Source: Streptomyces sp. SID12488 (GTDB lineage Bacteria; Actinomycetota; Actinomycetes; Streptomycetales; Streptomycetaceae). From it: a DNA stretch of 64,000 bases. The stretch's first letter is position 1. The number at the start of each line of letters is the position of its first letter. The notes beneath the pieces were generated by a model. It searched no databases. It saw only the letters and a program-made list of their open reading frames with translations, and was not told the DNA's origin. The position numbers and the translations under genes were made by a program. The stretch is from contig NZ_JAAGLT010000005.1 of the NCBI RefSeq assembly GCF_010548275.1, positions 124,001 through 188,000 on the forward strand. Direction: 5' to 3'. This document shows positions 59,360 to 64,000 of this stretch, in pieces.

Positions 59360-60841
59360 ATGAACATGGCGATGATGCGCCTGAGGCGCGAGGACCCGCG
59401 CGTCGTCGGCTCGTTCAGGCTTCACAGACGGCTCGGCGCGGGCGGCATGGGCGTCGTCTACCTGGGCTCCGACAAGCGGGGGCAGCGCGTCGCGCTGAAG
59501 GTGATCCGGCCCGATCTGGCGGAGGATCAGGAGTTCCGTTCCCGGTTCGCGCGCGAGGTCTCGGCGGCCCGGCGGATCAGGGGCGGGTGCACCGCGCGGC
59601 TCGTCGCCGCGGATCTGGACGCGGACCGGCCGTGGTTCGCCACGCAGTACGTGCCGGGGCCCTCCCTGCACGACAAGGTCATGGACGAGGGATCGCTCAG
59701 TGCGGCAGACGTCGCCTCCATCGGCGCCGCCCTCGCCGAGGGGCTGGTCGCGGTGCACGAGGCCGGTGTCGTGCACCGGGACCTGAAGCCGTCCAACATC
59801 CTGCTGTCCCCCAAGGGGCCGCGGATCATCGACTTCGGCATCGCCTGGGCGACCGGGGCCTCGACACTCACCCACGTCGGTACGGCGGTCGGCTCGCCCG
59901 GCTTCCTCGCACCCGAACAGGTGCGCGGCGCGGCGGTCACGCCGGCCACGGACGTGTTCTCGCTCGGCGCCACTCTCGCGTACGCCTCGATGGCCGACTC
60001 GCCCTTCGGGCACGGCAGTTCCGAGGTGATGCTGTACCGGGTGGTCCACGAGGAGGCCCACCTGCAGGGCGTTCCGGACGCGCTGGCACCCCTCGTACGG
60101 GCGTGTCTGGCGAAGGATCCGGAGGAGCGTCCGAGCACGCTCCAACTGTCGCTGCGGCTCAAGGAGATCGCGGCGCGCGAGGCGCAGGGCATGGCGGACT
60201 CACGGCCGCCCGGGCCGCATGCGGCCGAGGCGGAGCGGCCGACGGGACGGCTCACCGAGAGCTATCCGGACCAGCGGCCCCCCTATCACTCCCAGACCCA
60301 GCCCCACTCGCAGTCCCCTTCCCCGTCACAGTCCCAGCGGCGTCCGCAGGGGCCGGCCTCGGGGGCGTCCGGGTCGCGCGGCGGCGTGCCGTCGCGGGGT
60401 GGCAGCGGTGCTTCTCGGGGGGAAAGTCCGTCGCGGGGTGGCGGGGCCTCGCGCGGTGGTGCCGCGTCGCCGCGTTCCGGGGCACGGCCGGTTCCCGGGG
60501 CGCGGAACACGAACCGTCCCGGTCCGCGCAGTGGCACCGGGCGTCCGGCGCCGCGTGGCACGGGCACCGGGCGGCGGCCCGCCAATCCGCGGCTCCTGCG
60601 GCAGCGGTTGTTCGTGTTCGTCGTGGTGACGCTGCTGGTGGCCCTCGGGATCGCGGCGGCTCAGGGATGCCAGGGCCCCAGCCGTGGGCTCGGGGACGAC
60701 AGTGGTCGTGGCGCAGGCGGGCAGGAACAACAGCAGCGGCAGGAGCAGGTGCGGCCGGACGACAAGCCCGGTGGTGGTGCCGGGTCGTTGGCACCCGCTC
60801 CGCCCCGGCCTCGGTCGAGCTCGGACGCGAACAGCGACTGA
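59360..60841 (+). CDS. serine/threonine protein kinase
   Basis: A 493-residue Hanks-type kinase. Glycine loop LGAGGMGVVY (25-34), catalytic Lys47 in VALKVI, HRDLKPSN (139-146), DFGIA (158-162) and the APEQ segment are all intact, so it should be active. From about residue 285 there is a long Ser/Gln/Pro/Gly/Arg-rich linker with SRGG repeats, then one membrane helix (LFVFVVVTLLVALGIAAAQG) and a short Gln/Asp/Pro-rich extracellular tail without PASTA repeats. Signal and targets unknown. The ATG at 59360 has a second ATG two codons later. Confidence 0.92.
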   Translation: MNMAMMRLRREDPRVVGSFRLHRRLGAGGMGVVYLGSDKRGQRVALKVIRPDLAEDQEFRSRFAREVSAARRIRGGCTARLVAADLDADRPWFATQYVPGPSLHDKVMDEGSLSAADVASIGAALAEGLVAVHEAGVVHRDLKPSNILLSPKGPRIIDFGIAWATGASTLTHVGTAVGSPGFLAPEQVRGAAVTPATDVFSLGATLAYASMADSPFGHGSSEVMLYRVVHEEAHLQGVPDALAPLVRACLAKDPEERPSTLQLSLRLKEIAAREAQGMADSRPPGPHAAEAERPTGRLTESYPDQRPPYHSQTQPHSQSPSPSQSQRRPQGPASGASGSRGGVPSRGGSGASRGESPSRGGGASRGGAASPRSGARPVPGARNTNRPGPRSGTGRPAPRGTGTGRRPANPRLLRQRLFVFVVVTLLVALGIAAAQGCQGPSRGLGDDSGRGAGGQEQQQRQEQVRPDDKPGGGAGSLAPAPPRPRSSSDANSD

Positions 60842-60889
60842 CGTCCGCCGGGACCTGAGGTTCTGGTCGTCGACTCGGGCTGACTCGGC

Positions 60890-61091
60890 ACAGGGGTGGG
60901 GCGGCTCGTCGCCACCACGTAGAGGGTGACCGTTGCCGCCGCGCCCACATCGAGGGAGTCGACGCCGTGGGCCATCGGGATGCGGATGTGTTCGTCGGCC
61001 GTCCCCAGGGCCTGGGTGGAGAGCTGTCGCCCTCCGCACCCAGGATCCAGGCGACGCGGTGCATCTTGTGCGGGGCCGTCTCGTCGAGGGT
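60890..61091 (-). pseudogene. remnant of a TrmH/SpoU RNA methyltransferase 3' end
   Basis: The minus strand reads TLDETAPHKMHRVAWILGAEG and then, after a 1-base frameshift near 61024-61034, QLSTQALGTADEHIRIPMAH and GVDSLDVGAAATVTLYVVAT. These are motifs 2 and 3 of the SpoU fold (LG-x-EG-x-G-L-S and I-P-M...S-L-(N/D)-V). The segment covers only the C-terminal third of the family and has no start codon, so it is a broken copy. It lies between the kinase stop and a 21-codon stub. It resembles the C-terminus of the intact gene at 62812 but is clearly diverged from it. Confidence 0.75.
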
Positions 61092-61157
61092 CTACTTGAT
61101 CTCGACCGTCACTTCGGAGGATCCGCACCCGACGACGGCCGGCACAATAACGCTCAC
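61092..61157 (-). pseudogene. 21-codon ORF stub coupled to the DUF6716 gene
   Basis: A GTG at 61155-61157 overlaps the DUF6716 stop (GTGA) and opens SVIVPAVVGCGSSEVTVEIK before a TAG. The start SVIVP is like that of family 2 glycosyltransferases, so this could be the truncated head of a lost downstream gene. It is too short to prove this. The TrmH remnant begins right after the TAG. Confidence 0.35.
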
Positions 61158-62446
61158 ACGGCCCCCCACCTGCGCAGCGTGGGGGCAACCCGCCGGGATC
61201 CGATGCGGTACAACTTCTTGGCCCCCCGCCCGGTGACCCGGCGTACGGCACTCTTCAGCGAACCGGGACCGGCGGTCCCCAGCGCAGTGGGCAGCGGGCG
61301 GCCCTTCTCGTCGATTCCATGGCGCTGCAGCAGGTCGCCCAGGTAGAACCCGGCGCGCTGCAGCGTGTAGTGCGGCCGCAGCGGTGGCAGCGGTCTGTCG
61401 GCGCGCAGGACGGCGAGGCGGGCGCGGGCGGTCGCGTACGGGTCGGTCTTGCCGATGCCCTGCGCGGTCACCCACTTCGGGTCGGGCTGGGGCAGGGCGC
61501 CGGCGTCGATCTCGTCCCAGGAGGCCAGGCAGCCGGAGTGCACGAAGTAGTGGTTGCCGTGAGCCTCGCGGACGCCGAAGTCGGTGAGGATCGCCGTCGG
61601 AATCCTGCGGTGCATCGACTCCAGGGCGGCCGTCGAACTGACGGTGACCAGCAGGTCGGTGCGGTCGAGGACCTCACCCATGTTGCCGTAGACCAGCTGG
61701 AGGTTGGCGGGGGCGGGCTCGGCCAGGTTGTCGATGAGCACCTGGTAGGGGTTGGCTTCGACGTGGGTGGTCCGCTCTCCGGGCAGACTTCGCAGCTTGA
61801 GCAGCACCAGCCGGTCCGGGTGGCGGCGGGCATGTGCGGCGACCCGCTCCAGGAGCCGAAGTCGGGACTCGCGCCCCTTCGGCACGGACGGCTGGACGGC
61901 GAAGGTGAGGGTGAACGGCCGGTCGTCGGACGGCCGGTAGGGCTCGCCGCCGAGGAAGGGCAGTGCGCACTCCACGACCGACTCCGGGTCGACCCCCACA
62001 CTCGCGAACGCGGAGCGGAAACGCCGGGCGTCGTAGGCGGAGTTGGCGAGGACGACATCCGTCCCCGCTCTCGTCATCAGGCCGTCGACCATCTTCTCGT
62101 AGACGACCCCGACATAGCCGGTGACAGTGATCGGGCGCTGCTCCAGCCCCTCCCACGCCAGACCCAGGCTGTGCGTGAGCGTGAGAATCGTGCCGCCGGC
62201 GATTGCCATCACCACGATGTCGGCGTCGGCCAGCTGCTCGTCGTCGACGAGTTCGACGGCGGACACCTCACGCTGGGTGTCGGGGACGATGCCGATCTCG
62301 GCGAGCTGCCGCTCCGTCGGGCACGAACGGCCGCGCAGGAAGAACGCGTCGAGAGCATGCCCGGGGGCGATCTCGCGGGCCACCGACGCCCCCCACTTCC
62401 ATCTCGTGTCCGAGTCGGCTAGTACGGCGATGCGTTTGGGAGGCAT
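61154..62446 (-). CDS. DUF6716 putative glycosyltransferase
   Basis: A 430-residue protein. It begins PKRIAVLADSDTRWKWGASVA, has a central segment with TVTGYVGVVYEKMVDGLMTRAGTDVVLANS and a C-terminal half with VTVSSTAALESMHRRIPTAILTDFGVREAHGNHYF that resembles the C-lobe of capsule-type GT-B enzymes. I recognise it as DUF6716, a putative glycosyltransferase family seen with cell-wall glycopolymer genes in Streptomyces. Here it stands alone, with no other sugar polymer gene beside it. AAGGGCGCTGAGCC precedes the ATG at 62444-62446. Confidence 0.8.
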   Translation of the reverse strand: MPPKRIAVLADSDTRWKWGASVAREIAPGHALDAFFLRGRSCPTERQLAEIGIVPDTQREVSAVELVDDEQLADADIVVMAIAGGTILTLTHSLGLAWEGLEQRPITVTGYVGVVYEKMVDGLMTRAGTDVVLANSAYDARRFRSAFASVGVDPESVVECALPFLGGEPYRPSDDRPFTLTFAVQPSVPKGRESRLRLLERVAAHARRHPDRLVLLKLRSLPGERTTHVEANPYQVLIDNLAEPAPANLQLVYGNMGEVLDRTDLLVTVSSTAALESMHRRIPTAILTDFGVREAHGNHYFVHSGCLASWDEIDAGALPQPDPKWVTAQGIGKTDPYATARARLAVLRADRPLPPLRPHYTLQRAGFYLGDLLQRHGIDEKGRPLPTALGTAGPGSLKSAVRRVTGRGAKKLYRIGSRRVAPTLRRWGAV

Positions 62447-62811
62447 GGCTCAGCGCCCTTTTCTGAAGTTGGTGCGGCAGGGTGAGCCGAGGCTAGAAGC
62501 GGAGCGTGGGTGTCCGATGAGGAGTTCCGAGGAATCTCCTGTGAACACGTGGTCCTCGAACGTCCTTGAACGTCCTTCATCACCCGGGGCCGCCGGTGCG
62601 CATCCTGTCGCTCTGGTCGTACGGACCCTTCCGAACGCGACAGAACCGTCCGCCGGTCCCGGGGGAGGTAGTGCCGGAAGACTCCCTGGCGGCACAGGAC
62701 GGGGGTGAGCTGTTCGCCGAGGTCCGTGGTGCGTTCGGGCGGCCTCACGACATGTGCAGGGCTACCCGCCAACACTCACGGACGGCACACGAACGGACGT
62801 CGGGCCTCCGG
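62447..62811. other. intergenic region between trmH and the DUF6716 gene
   Basis: A 365-base gap. It has a short tandem GAACGTCCTT pair near 62557-62576. No terminator hairpin of clear strength and no gene were found. Confidence 0.4.
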
Positions 62812-63708
62812 TCAGGCGGGCCTTGACCGAGTCGCGTAGAACGCGACGGCAGAAGCAGCCGCCACGTTGAGAGAGTCGATCCCGGCGGACATGGGAATGC
62901 GCACCCACTCATCCGCGGCCCGAAGAGCGAACGTGGACAGCCCATGCCCCTCCGACCCCAGCATGATGGCGCACCTCTCGAAATACTTCGGATCCAGCCT
63001 GTCCAGCGGAGTCGCCTTCTCGTCCGGGGTCATGGCCAGGATGTCGAACCCGGCCTCACGCACGAGATCGAGCCCCGCCGGCCACGCGTCGAACCGCGCA
63101 TAGGGAACCGAGAAGACAGCACCCATCGACACCTTGATCGCACGCCGGTACAAGGGATCCGCACAGTCCGGCGACAGCAGGATGCCCCTGATACCCAGAG
63201 CGGCGGCGCTACGGAACGCAGCCCCAAGATTCGCATGATCAACGAAACCCTCGAAGATCGCGATCCGCTGACCTGCGTCATCCTGCGGACCCGAAGCGAA
63301 CATCGCGCCGATGTCGGTGTGGTCGTTGACCGACTCCATGACCACCGTCCGGCGCGCGGTCTGCAGGAGTTCGTCCGCCGTCGGGAGCGGTTTGCGCTGC
63401 ATGGAGGCGAGGGCGCCACGGTGCACGTGGTAGCCGGTGACACGTTCGGCGAGCTCTGGGCTCACCGCGTACACCGGCGCCGGGAGTTCGTCGATGACGT
63501 CGCGCATGACGTCGACCCACTTCGCGGACAGGAGCATCGAACGCATCTCGTAACCGGCGTCCTTGGCCCGTCTGATGACCTTCTCGCCCTCGGCGATGAA
63601 CAGGCCCTCCGCGGGCTCGCGTTTGCGGCGCAGTTCGACGTCGGTCAGTCCCGTGTAGTCGCGCAGACGCGGGTCGTCGGGGTCCTCGACGGTGATGAGA
63701 TCGGCCAC
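62812..63708 (-). CDS. TrmH/SpoU family RNA methyltransferase, apparently chimeric
   Basis: A 298-residue RNA ribose methyltransferase. The substrate-binding N-terminus (RRKREPAEGLFIAEGEKVIRRA) and the SpoU motifs are present: motif 1 DHANLGAAFRSAAALG, motif 2 IMLGSEGHGLS, motif 3 VRIPMSAGIDSLNVAAASAV. About 24 residues earlier a second motif-1-like stretch occurs (VNDHTDIGAMFASG), then PQDDAGQ, so motif 1 is partly duplicated. Downstream of this point many codons end in T or A (GTT, GAT, CAT, AAT, CTT), unlike the 5' half. The GTG at 63706-63708 gives the usual start (ADLITVEDPDDPRLRDY). The target RNA is unknown. Confidence 0.88.
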   Translation of the reverse strand: MADLITVEDPDDPRLRDYTGLTDVELRRKREPAEGLFIAEGEKVIRRAKDAGYEMRSMLLSAKWVDVMRDVIDELPAPVYAVSPELAERVTGYHVHRGALASMQRKPLPTADELLQTARRTVVMESVNDHTDIGAMFASGPQDDAGQRIAIFEGFVDHANLGAAFRSAAALGIRGILLSPDCADPLYRRAIKVSMGAVFSVPYARFDAWPAGLDLVREAGFDILAMTPDEKATPLDRLDPKYFERCAIMLGSEGHGLSTFALRAADEWVRIPMSAGIDSLNVAAASAVAFYATRSRPA

Positions 63709-63773
63709 AGGGGTGATACTGCCTTGTCCTGGGTGCGGTGCCAACGGCTGGGAACGGATTGTGTTACCCGGGG

Positions 63774-64000
63774 TTACAGCAATGTCGTCGGGCCTACGTT
63801 CACGACCGCGCCGATCACGATCACCGCAGGGGGCTTCACGTCCTGCGTACGGACCGTCTCGGCGACCGTCGCGAGGGTCGCGTCTACACGCCGCTGGGCC
63901 GCGGTCGTGCCCTCCTGGACCAGGGCGACCGGCGTGTCCGGGGACTTGCCGTGCGCGACCAGGGTCTCCGCGATCCGGCCGATCTTGTCGACGCCCATGA
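63774..64000 (-). CDS. cobA: uroporphyrinogen-III C-methyltransferase, C-terminal fragment
   Basis: The 3' end of a gene that runs off the right edge; about 75 codons are visible. The piece MGVDKIGRIAETLVAHGKSP, then TPVALVQEGTTAAQRRVDATL, AVIVIGAVVNVG, matches the C-terminal part of SUMT enzymes (CobA/SirA type), which methylate uroporphyrinogen III for cobalamin and siroheme. The stop is TAA at 63774-63776, 65 bases before the trmH start. The call is confident for the family, less for the exact symbol. Confidence 0.88.
   Translation of the reverse strand, partial: MGVDKIGRIAETLVAHGKSPDTPVALVQEGTTAAQRRVDATLATVAETVRTQDVKPPAVIVIGAVVNVGPTTLL

What the first reader, a model, noticed from the sequence alone, without database searches (positions are those of the whole stretch)
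60890..63708. A chimeric TrmH gene with its displaced old 3' end 1.7 kb away
The intact RNA methyltransferase (62812-63708) has a partly duplicated motif 1 (DHTDIGAMFASG, then about 24 residues later DHANLGAAFRSA). Its codon use shifts there to many T- or A-ended codons. A frameshifted TrmH 3' remnant lies at 60890-61091 on the same strand, and a DUF6716 gene plus a 21-codon stub lie between. The simplest reading is that a segment entered the native gene, re-supplied a foreign 3' half that keeps it in frame, and pushed the native 3' end downstream. That is how site-specific elements entering the 3' part of a gene behave, yet no integrase is seen.
Basis: partly seen in the sequence, partly recalled or inferred. 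Interest (0 to 1): 0.75.

Follow-up and report, generated by a model that had tools for sequence, protein, structure and literature searches.

The report
Phage-supplied half of a methyltransferase gene
A Streptomyces RNA-methyltransferase gene seems to have had its catalytic half replaced by a version of the kind carried by temperate phages that insert into that gene, and the gene's original end still lies as a decaying fragment beyond the inserted DNA.

Summary
The trmH gene (62812-63744, minus) is a chimera: its 5' part is 95% identical in DNA to an empty-site relative (G091) up to one point, and its 3' part belongs to another TrmH lineage. The native 3' end lies displaced and frameshifted at 60880-61093, with 202 nt missing. 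The doubled motif 1 is a recombination scar.

The missing integrase turned up outside the window. Streptomyces phages Kamino and Sitrop carry a serine integrase gene beside an open frame for a complete TrmH catalytic (SPOUT) domain. Kamino's attP is TGTAGACC-N16-GG-N16-GGTCTACA. The window gene has GG-N16-GGTCCGCA at the break; five other fresh scars in Streptomyces trmH genes have the same spacing with 0-2 mismatches. Host and phage joined at that GG read in frame, with motif spacing within one residue of the bacterial genes.

trmH is a recurrent insertion site; others hold CRISPR-Cas genes, a biosynthetic cluster or other cargo, the window DUF6716. No integrase was found in the inserts, so the element that entered this genome is inferred. 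The mechanism class is known (e14 in icd); I found no report of this site or of whole-domain replacement there.

The parts
62812..63744 (-). chimeric trmH (SpoU/TrmH-family RNA methyltransferase), 310 codons from the first TTG; likely start GTG at 63708
   Evidence: ORF; Pfam SpoU_methylase residues 163-303; MRM3-like substrate-binding domain 38-104, just under its cut-off
63310..63744 (-). host (native, form A) 5' part of trmH, left arm of the inferred attB
   Evidence: 482/505 nt with G091 up to the break; protein identical to 7 form-A genes over 105 columns
63308..63309 (-). inferred crossover dinucleotide GG (CC on + strand)
   Evidence: centre of the perfect inverted repeat in 6 of 12 phage attP regions read, of an imperfect one in the other 6; host sequence kept on both sides of G155 and H27-C3 inserts overlaps on GGC
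63284..63291 (-). GGTCCGCA, attP-type right-arm repeat 16 nt from the GG (Kamino GGTCTACA; 2 mismatches)
63268..63307 (-). in-frame scar (residues 147-159, AMFASGPQDDAGQ) between the old motif 1 and the new domain
   Evidence: comparable scar in other genes and in the predicted Kamino/Sitrop fusions
62812..63267 (-). re-supplied SPOUT catalytic domain (from RIAIFEGF), foreign to the native lineage
   Evidence: groups with form C and contig L138 at 98/88, apart from form A at 100/98; SpoU_methylase 5-142/142 on the last 159 residues
61154..62446 (-). DUF6716 gene (putative glycosyltransferase), cargo of the insert
   Evidence: PF20471; 78-82% DNA identity over up to 61153-62499 with six relatives that carry it at another locus
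60880..61093 (-). displaced native trmH 3' end, frameshifted; far junction and 202 nt lost
   Evidence: 186/215 nt to G091; frames; no GGCGCSATCTTC left in 60701-63250; also found
59360..60841 (+). flanking Ser/Thr kinase gene, marker of the conserved locus
   Evidence: Pfam Pkinase; relatives
63774..64000 (-). flanking tetrapyrrole methylase gene (runs past the window), the other marker
   Evidence: L114 7775-9085; TP_methylase and NAD_binding_7

Best explanation
The window gene reads as the surviving attL of a past integration. An integrative element with a large serine integrase of Kamino/Sitrop specificity, most likely a temperate phage or its derivative, recombined with an attB inside native trmH at the GG of CATC-GG-CGCGATC, in the first motif of the catalytic domain. 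Beyond its attP the element carried an open frame for a complete SPOUT domain. Integration cut off the host's catalytic domain and fused the host N-terminal part, with the old first strand and motif and a 13-residue scar as linker, in frame to the element's domain. The host's 3' part was pushed to the far side. Later most of the element was lost, with attR and 202 nt of the displaced part; a DUF6716 gene came with it or afterwards; the unused native end frameshifted. Shown: chimera, break point, displaced end, empty site, shared scar, phage att regions with integrase and domain side by side, in-frame predicted fusion. Inferred: that an integrase made this junction, the identity of the element, its deletion, and that the chimera is an active enzyme.
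For: (1) Break against the empty site G091 and a displaced native 3' end. (2) The 3' half follows form C and contig L138, the 5' half form A. In G155 (strain ATexAB-D23) the displaced 3' half falls in form A, in an unresolved node beside G075, which is also the neighbour of G155's 5' half (80/80). (3) Two inserts keep both ends: G155 (native 3' half from the break on, 89% to form A, 11.5 kb away) and H27-C3 (88%, 4.6 kb away). (4) Kamino and Sitrop: serine integrase gene beside a complete SpoU domain. (5) Anchored on their shared GGGCGC, the att regions of 12 phages have 8-mer arms 16 nt either side of GG, with 0 inverted-repeat mismatches in six, 2 in three, 3 in three. (6) Six fresh bacterial scars have the right-arm 8-mer at offset 16 with 7 mismatches in 48 letters, against 27-44 at the 21 other offsets; random GG sites of the window reach <=2 mismatches at 67 of 13478. 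(7) Host and phage joined at GG stay open through the domain for Kamino and Sitrop; ten related phages without the domain stop early.
Against: No integrase was found in the inserts and no genus genome of 295 has a close Kamino-type integrase (best 42%), so no intact prophage was seen at trmH. The phage domains are 54-57% identical to the window's 3' half: neither phage is the donor. The attR left arm is recognisable in H27-C3 (TGTCTTCC-N16-GG; by eye 3 mismatches to Kamino, 2 to Sitrop) but not in G155, and is gone in the window. The six scars are not independent: G155 and A1277 are near-identical; H27-C3 and A1277 were found with a pattern that asked for part of the motif, the other four by protein similarity. 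Contig L138 was left out of the offset count; with its 3-nt shorter spacing it has 5 mismatches at offset 16. Decayed scars: G308 1 mismatch but GA for GG, G143 1, G070 2, G179 3, G158 4. Some phages read are close relatives of each other.
Confidence: 0.87

Rival explanations
1. Same mechanism, but the element was not a phage: an ICE, AICE, mobilizable or satellite element with an integrase of the same specificity and its own SPOUT-domain tail. (This shares the core of the best explanation; the odds overlap.)
For: The inserts hold varied cargo rather than recognised phage genes. Contig L138 and H27-C3 share a regulator next to the new trmH 3' half (86%). phiJoe's attB is occupied by small variable elements with a related integrase (PMC5311408, passages); an AICE sits in rlmN in Streptomyces and AICEs decay to cargo plus repeats (PMC9513070, passages).
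Against: The only carriers of integrase plus domain that I found are phages; relatives of the shared regulator lie in other contexts.
Confidence: 0.3
2. Homologous recombination with an incoming trmH allele replaced the 3' half, and a second illegitimate event left the old end downstream.
For: Forms A, B and C occupy the same locus in the genus, and genes without a scar (for example G046) also join an A-like 5' part to a B 3' part.
Against: The junction is out of register with the trmH alignment (two motif 1 copies), recurs at the same base with 3' halves of different lineages, and carries an attP-type repeat at fixed spacing. G155 and H27-C3 keep both ends of an insertion.
Confidence: 0.06
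3. Integrase-independent illegitimate insertion, or duplication and divergence within the gene.
For: No recombinase is present now; 202 nt are missing at the far junction.
Against: The new 3' half is of another lineage, and break point and scar recur.
Confidence: 0.03
4. Assembly artefact.
For: The genome is in 183 contigs.
Against: The same kind of chimera occurs in other assemblies, including G090 (1 contig), G179 (3) and G025 (4); the remnant is a decayed native end, not a copy of the intact gene.
Confidence: 0.01

Closest known systems
e14 element / phage 21 in icd (isocitrate dehydrogenase) of E. coli
   Same: Site-specific integration inside a coding gene; the element supplies the 3' end in frame and the displaced host end remains as a pseudogene (e14: PMC6379469, passages; phage 21 recalled).
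   Different: In icd a short 3' stretch (163 bp in that paper) is involved and the protein hardly changes. Here a whole catalytic domain (about 150 codons, 66-70% identical to the native kind) replaces the host's, with a scar. Recalled: icd elements use tyrosine integrases.
phiJoe and its attB in Streptomyces (serine integrase)
   Same: Related phage group; GG crossover at the centre of an imperfect inverted repeat; attB in a coding gene occupied by a mobile element of varied content (PMC5311408, passages).
   Different: Target is a radical-SAM gene, 74 bp from its end; no re-supplied domain in the passages read.
Phages with Kamino-type integrases (Camvirus, Likavirus: Kamino, Sitrop, phiScoe45, Amela, Aaronocolus)
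   Same: Same att architecture as the window scar; Kamino and Sitrop carry the SPOUT domain.
   Different: No attB is named in what I saw of PMC11536984, PMC10276819, PMC10656467 (passages) and PMC8407746 (whole text). The ten relatives read lack the domain and would truncate trmH.
AICE in rlmN of Streptomyces; AICE decay
   Same: Element inside an RNA methyltransferase gene; decayed elements leave cargo between repeats, with a partial integrase or none (PMC9513070, passages).
   Different: Another gene family; 11-nt repeats; no re-supplied domain described in the passages read.
[quoted passage not shown]
   Same: A SpoU-family gene as phage attachment site (PMC10654092, passages).
   Different: Insertion at the sixth codon; the authors leave open whether expression is reconstituted.

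Membership tests
attL half-site of Kamino/Sitrop specificity | host sequence continuous with an empty site up to the crossover, foreign after it | tested here: met
attL half-site of Kamino/Sitrop specificity | attP right half-site at the proper distance from the crossover dinucleotide | tested here: met
   GGTCCGCA at 16 nt, 2 of 8 mismatches to Kamino; null 67 of 13478
attL half-site of Kamino/Sitrop specificity | the integrase recombines attP with trmH attB | not testable with these tools
   needs an assay
intact integrated element (prophage, ICE) | matching attR | tested here: not met
   deleted in the window; left-arm-like sequence in H27-C3, not in G155
intact integrated element (prophage, ICE) | cognate integrase | tested here: not met
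   none in the insert or genome
intact integrated element (prophage, ICE) | phage structural or conjugation genes between the trmH pieces | tested here: not met
   in the 1718-bp insert the one gene recognised is DUF6716
gene-restoring integration (icd type) | in-frame replacement of the cut-off end supplied by the element | tested here: met
   open 310-codon chimera; predicted Kamino/Sitrop fusions open
gene-restoring integration (icd type) | displaced host end persists as a pseudogene | tested here: met
   60880-61093
TrmH/SpoU methyltransferase | complete SPOUT domain after the junction | tested here: met
   PF00588 5-142/142; PDB chains 1gz0 and 5kzk align from residues 161 and 158
TrmH/SpoU methyltransferase | enzymatic activity of the chimera | not testable with these tools
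   needs an assay

The most novel reading that the evidence does not exclude
trmH is a standing domain-exchange site in Streptomyces. Phages or elements carry spare SPOUT domains as the price of integrating in the gene, and after the element decays the host keeps a foreign catalytic domain, so a core RNA-modification enzyme is re-headed repeatedly. The same door lets cargo such as CRISPR-Cas, biosynthetic clusters and DUF6716 settle. The scar-free form C and some form-B genes may be older products of the same process.
Probability: 0.5. Interest if true: 0.82.

Novelty: new variant of a known kind. Interest (0 to 1): 0.72.

Why it matters
It suggests that a phage-type element can replace the whole catalytic domain of a housekeeping RNA methyltransferase while keeping the gene open, and that the replacement outlives the element. 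It gives a concrete, testable attB for a large family of Streptomyces phage serine integrases: 41 of the 90 phage records matched are at least 60% identical to Kamino's. [quoted passage not shown] It also explains an insertion hotspot with very different cargo, a CRISPR-Cas locus included.

Tried and rejected
Integrase relatives in 295 genus genomes: 23 genomes match at 33-42% identity. None of the 12 fetched loci (1.5 kb flanks) has a TrmH piece in it, so these look like other elements.

Regulator shared by H27-C3 and L138 as an element marker: 31 of 372 genomes have relatives at E<=1e-100. The five contexts I read are varied, and none of the 20 loci fetched shows the domain or the integrase in its flanks. 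Dropped.

attP pattern in viral contigs: one hit, L152, in an unrelated phage-like contig; taken as chance.

Structure prediction of the chimera from five sequences was poor (mean pLDDT 38.3) and is not used. Domain limits come from Pfam and PDB sequence matches.

Plasmid collection: 80 records match, all under 60% identity; I saw the 20 best (at most 57%) and did not look at the four Streptomyces records in the tally. Phage collection: 40 records match and 20 were listed; the faecal 'Bacteriophage sp.' records (up to 53.6%) were not followed.

Literature: 'TrmH + attachment site + prophage + integrase' gave 0 papers. 'SpoU + prophage + attB' gave 4, one of them relevant to another site. The listings of searches showed no trmH attachment site in Streptomyces. 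A 2026 paper on Streptomyces integration sites has no occurrence of TrmH, SpoU or methyltransferase in its main text (PMC12924846). Only open-licence papers are held.

Rows dropped: one of 63 loci prepared for the TrmH comparison gave no reading. L138 was left out of the offset count. The G155_displaced tree row had five residues added by hand. The displaced tail in G025, the 13-nt spacing in L138 and the H27-C3 left-arm mismatches were read by eye.
Full report
Terms. Form A is the commonest TrmH of the genus genomes compared (about 290 codons, one motif 1). Forms B and C have other catalytic halves (RxAxFEDIVDHxNLGAAFRN and RIAVFEGFVDHANLGAAFRS). These names are mine.

Check of the observation. 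The gene at 62812-63744 (minus) is open for 310 codons and ends in a SpoU methylase domain. It lies at a conserved locus between a tetrapyrrole methylase gene and a Ser/Thr kinase gene. Window DNA matches G091 at 482 of 505 positions from upstream of trmH to ...ACATCGGCGCGATSTTC, then stops. G091 nt 708-922, the end of its trmH region, reappear at 61093-60880 at 186 of 215 with a 1-nt gap; 202 nt in between are gone. The chimera's own 3' half matches G091 at only 277 of 386. GC3 falls from 0.93 to 0.60 at the junction and recovers further on.

Different ancestry of the halves. In trees of 63 rows (5' part) and 67 rows (3' part), the window's 5' part is identical in protein to G091 and six other form-A genes; its 3' part joins form C (G071, G134, G167, G078, G250) and contig L138 at 98/88, apart from form A at 100/98. 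The 5' tree is weakly resolved (5 of 44 inner branches starred).

It is not alone. Of 62 TrmH genes read from loci chosen by similarity (one more gave no reading), eight carry a native-type motif 1 remnant, in various states of decay, then a linker and a second motif 1: G090, G155, G025, G070, G179, G143, G158 and G308; G358 is doubtful. Of 16 genomes searched with the native 3' half, four have a displaced piece: the window's own, G155, G143 and G070. In G155 and H27-C3 the displaced native half is whole from the break on, 11.5 and 4.6 kb from the new stop codon; in A1277 residues 52-143 of it lie on another contig.

Cargo differs. G155: Cas3, Cse1, Cas5 and Cas2 genes. G070: about 34 kb with ketosynthase and EryCIII-like genes. 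G090: PGA_cap and Mur-ligase-like genes. G143: a frame with solute-binding and carbamoyltransferase C-terminal matches. H27-C3: an HTH regulator. Window: DUF6716. G179 and G158 keep a chimera but have under 1 kb between trmH and the kinase gene. A serine-integrase HMM finds nothing in 13 insert sequences from 11 loci.

The integrase. A protein search of phage records with the window's 3' half matched 40 records, with Streptomyces phages Kamino and Sitrop on top. In both, a serine integrase gene lies directly beside an open frame that covers SpoU_methylase positions 3-142 of 142. The Kamino integrase has relatives in 90 phage records at E<=1e-40; by the tallies of both searches only Kamino and Sitrop among these carry the domain. 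I read the att region of 12 phages (these two and ten chosen from the rows listed), anchored on a shared GGGCGC. The 8-mers 16 nt either side of the GG form an inverted repeat with 0 mismatches in six, two in three and three in three. I infer the crossover GG from this symmetry and from the host sequence (GGC) kept at both ends of the G155 and H27-C3 inserts.

The scar is an attP half-site. In the window, G155, A1277, H27-C3, G090 and G025 the 8-mer exactly 16 nt after the host GG differs from GGTCTACA by 2, 1, 0, 1, 1 and 2 letters: 7 of 48, against 27 to 44 at the 21 other offsets. Random GG sites in the window reach 2 or fewer mismatches at 67 of 13478. The other six tested: G308 1 (but GA for GG), G143 1, G070 2, G179 3, G158 4, L138 5 (3 nt shorter spacing; left out of the offset count). 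G155 and A1277 are near-identical, and H27-C3 and A1277 were found with a pattern that held part of this motif. H27-C3 has TGTCTTCC-N16-GG before the host right arm, resembling the phage left arm; G155 does not.

The fusion. Joined at the GG, host and Kamino read NDHTNIGAFSQFGLQRVAGQGRIAVFEDVVDHTNLGA and stay open for the whole domain. The bacterial genes read NDHTDIGAMFASGPQDDAGQRIAIFEGFVDHANLGA (window, 21 residues between the motifs) and NDHTNIGAMLPLGLQERAGQRRIAIFEDIVDHANLGA (G155, 22, as in the Kamino fusion). The ten other phages would stop 28 to 129 codons into the joined peptide. phiScoe45, with an integrase 98% identical to Kamino's, has the same outer arms but a stop codon in the linker and no domain.

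DUF6716. The window copy is 78-82% identical in DNA to copies in six relatives (of twelve genomes with close homologues) that sit at another, shared locus. In the window's genome that locus lacks the gene. Whether it came with the element or later is open.

Reading. Best explanation: the chimera is the surviving attL of a serine-integrase element, probably a phage, that brought its own SPOUT domain; the element is now mostly deleted. The donor is not Kamino or Sitrop (54-57% identity). Activity of the chimera is inferred from its open frame and complete domain. attR and a resident integrase are absent, so I claim a past gene-restoring integration, not a prophage.

Known and new. e14 in icd separates 163 bp of the gene and supplies its end (PMC6379469, passages). 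phiJoe's attB is filled by varied elements (PMC5311408, passages). An AICE sits in rlmN (PMC9513070, passages). A SpoU gene is an M. abscessus attB at its sixth codon (PMC10654092, passages). The Kamino paper (passages), the Sitrop announcement (whole text), the phiScoe paper (passages) and the Vanseggelen/Verabelle paper (passages) name no trmH site in what I saw. I found no report of whole-domain replacement in trmH in searches, of which I saw listings and the passages named.

Noticed in passing
L180 (phiScoe45) and L123 (Kamino): Integrases 98% identical and the same attP arms, but only Kamino carries the SPOUT domain and an open linker: a natural pair for testing what the domain is worth to a lysogen.
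   Followed up: partly
L153 2434-3678 of the reverse complement; L138: An HTH regulator gene (86% identical in the two) directly follows the new trmH 3' half in strain H27-C3 and in a viral-collection contig with a different trmH domain; the relatives read elsewhere sit in other contexts.
   Followed up: partly
L115 2.0-13.4 kb (G155, Streptomyces sp. ATexAB-D23): Cas3, Cse1, Cas5 and Cas2 genes sit between the two halves of trmH.
   Followed up: partly
G046, G002 and G021 trmH: Genes without a scar also join an A-like 5' part to a B-type 3' domain: older swaps whose scar is lost, or ordinary recombination.
   Followed up: no
L178 (G000:C98) and L108-L113: The accessory DUF6716 gene has a shared locus in six relatives, and that locus lacks the gene in the window's genome.
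   Followed up: partly
window 60783-60880: About 190 bp of G091 between the trmH end and the kinase gene's 3' end are absent here or inserted in G091 (BLASTN jump from G091 922 to 1115), next to the decaying remnant.
   Followed up: no
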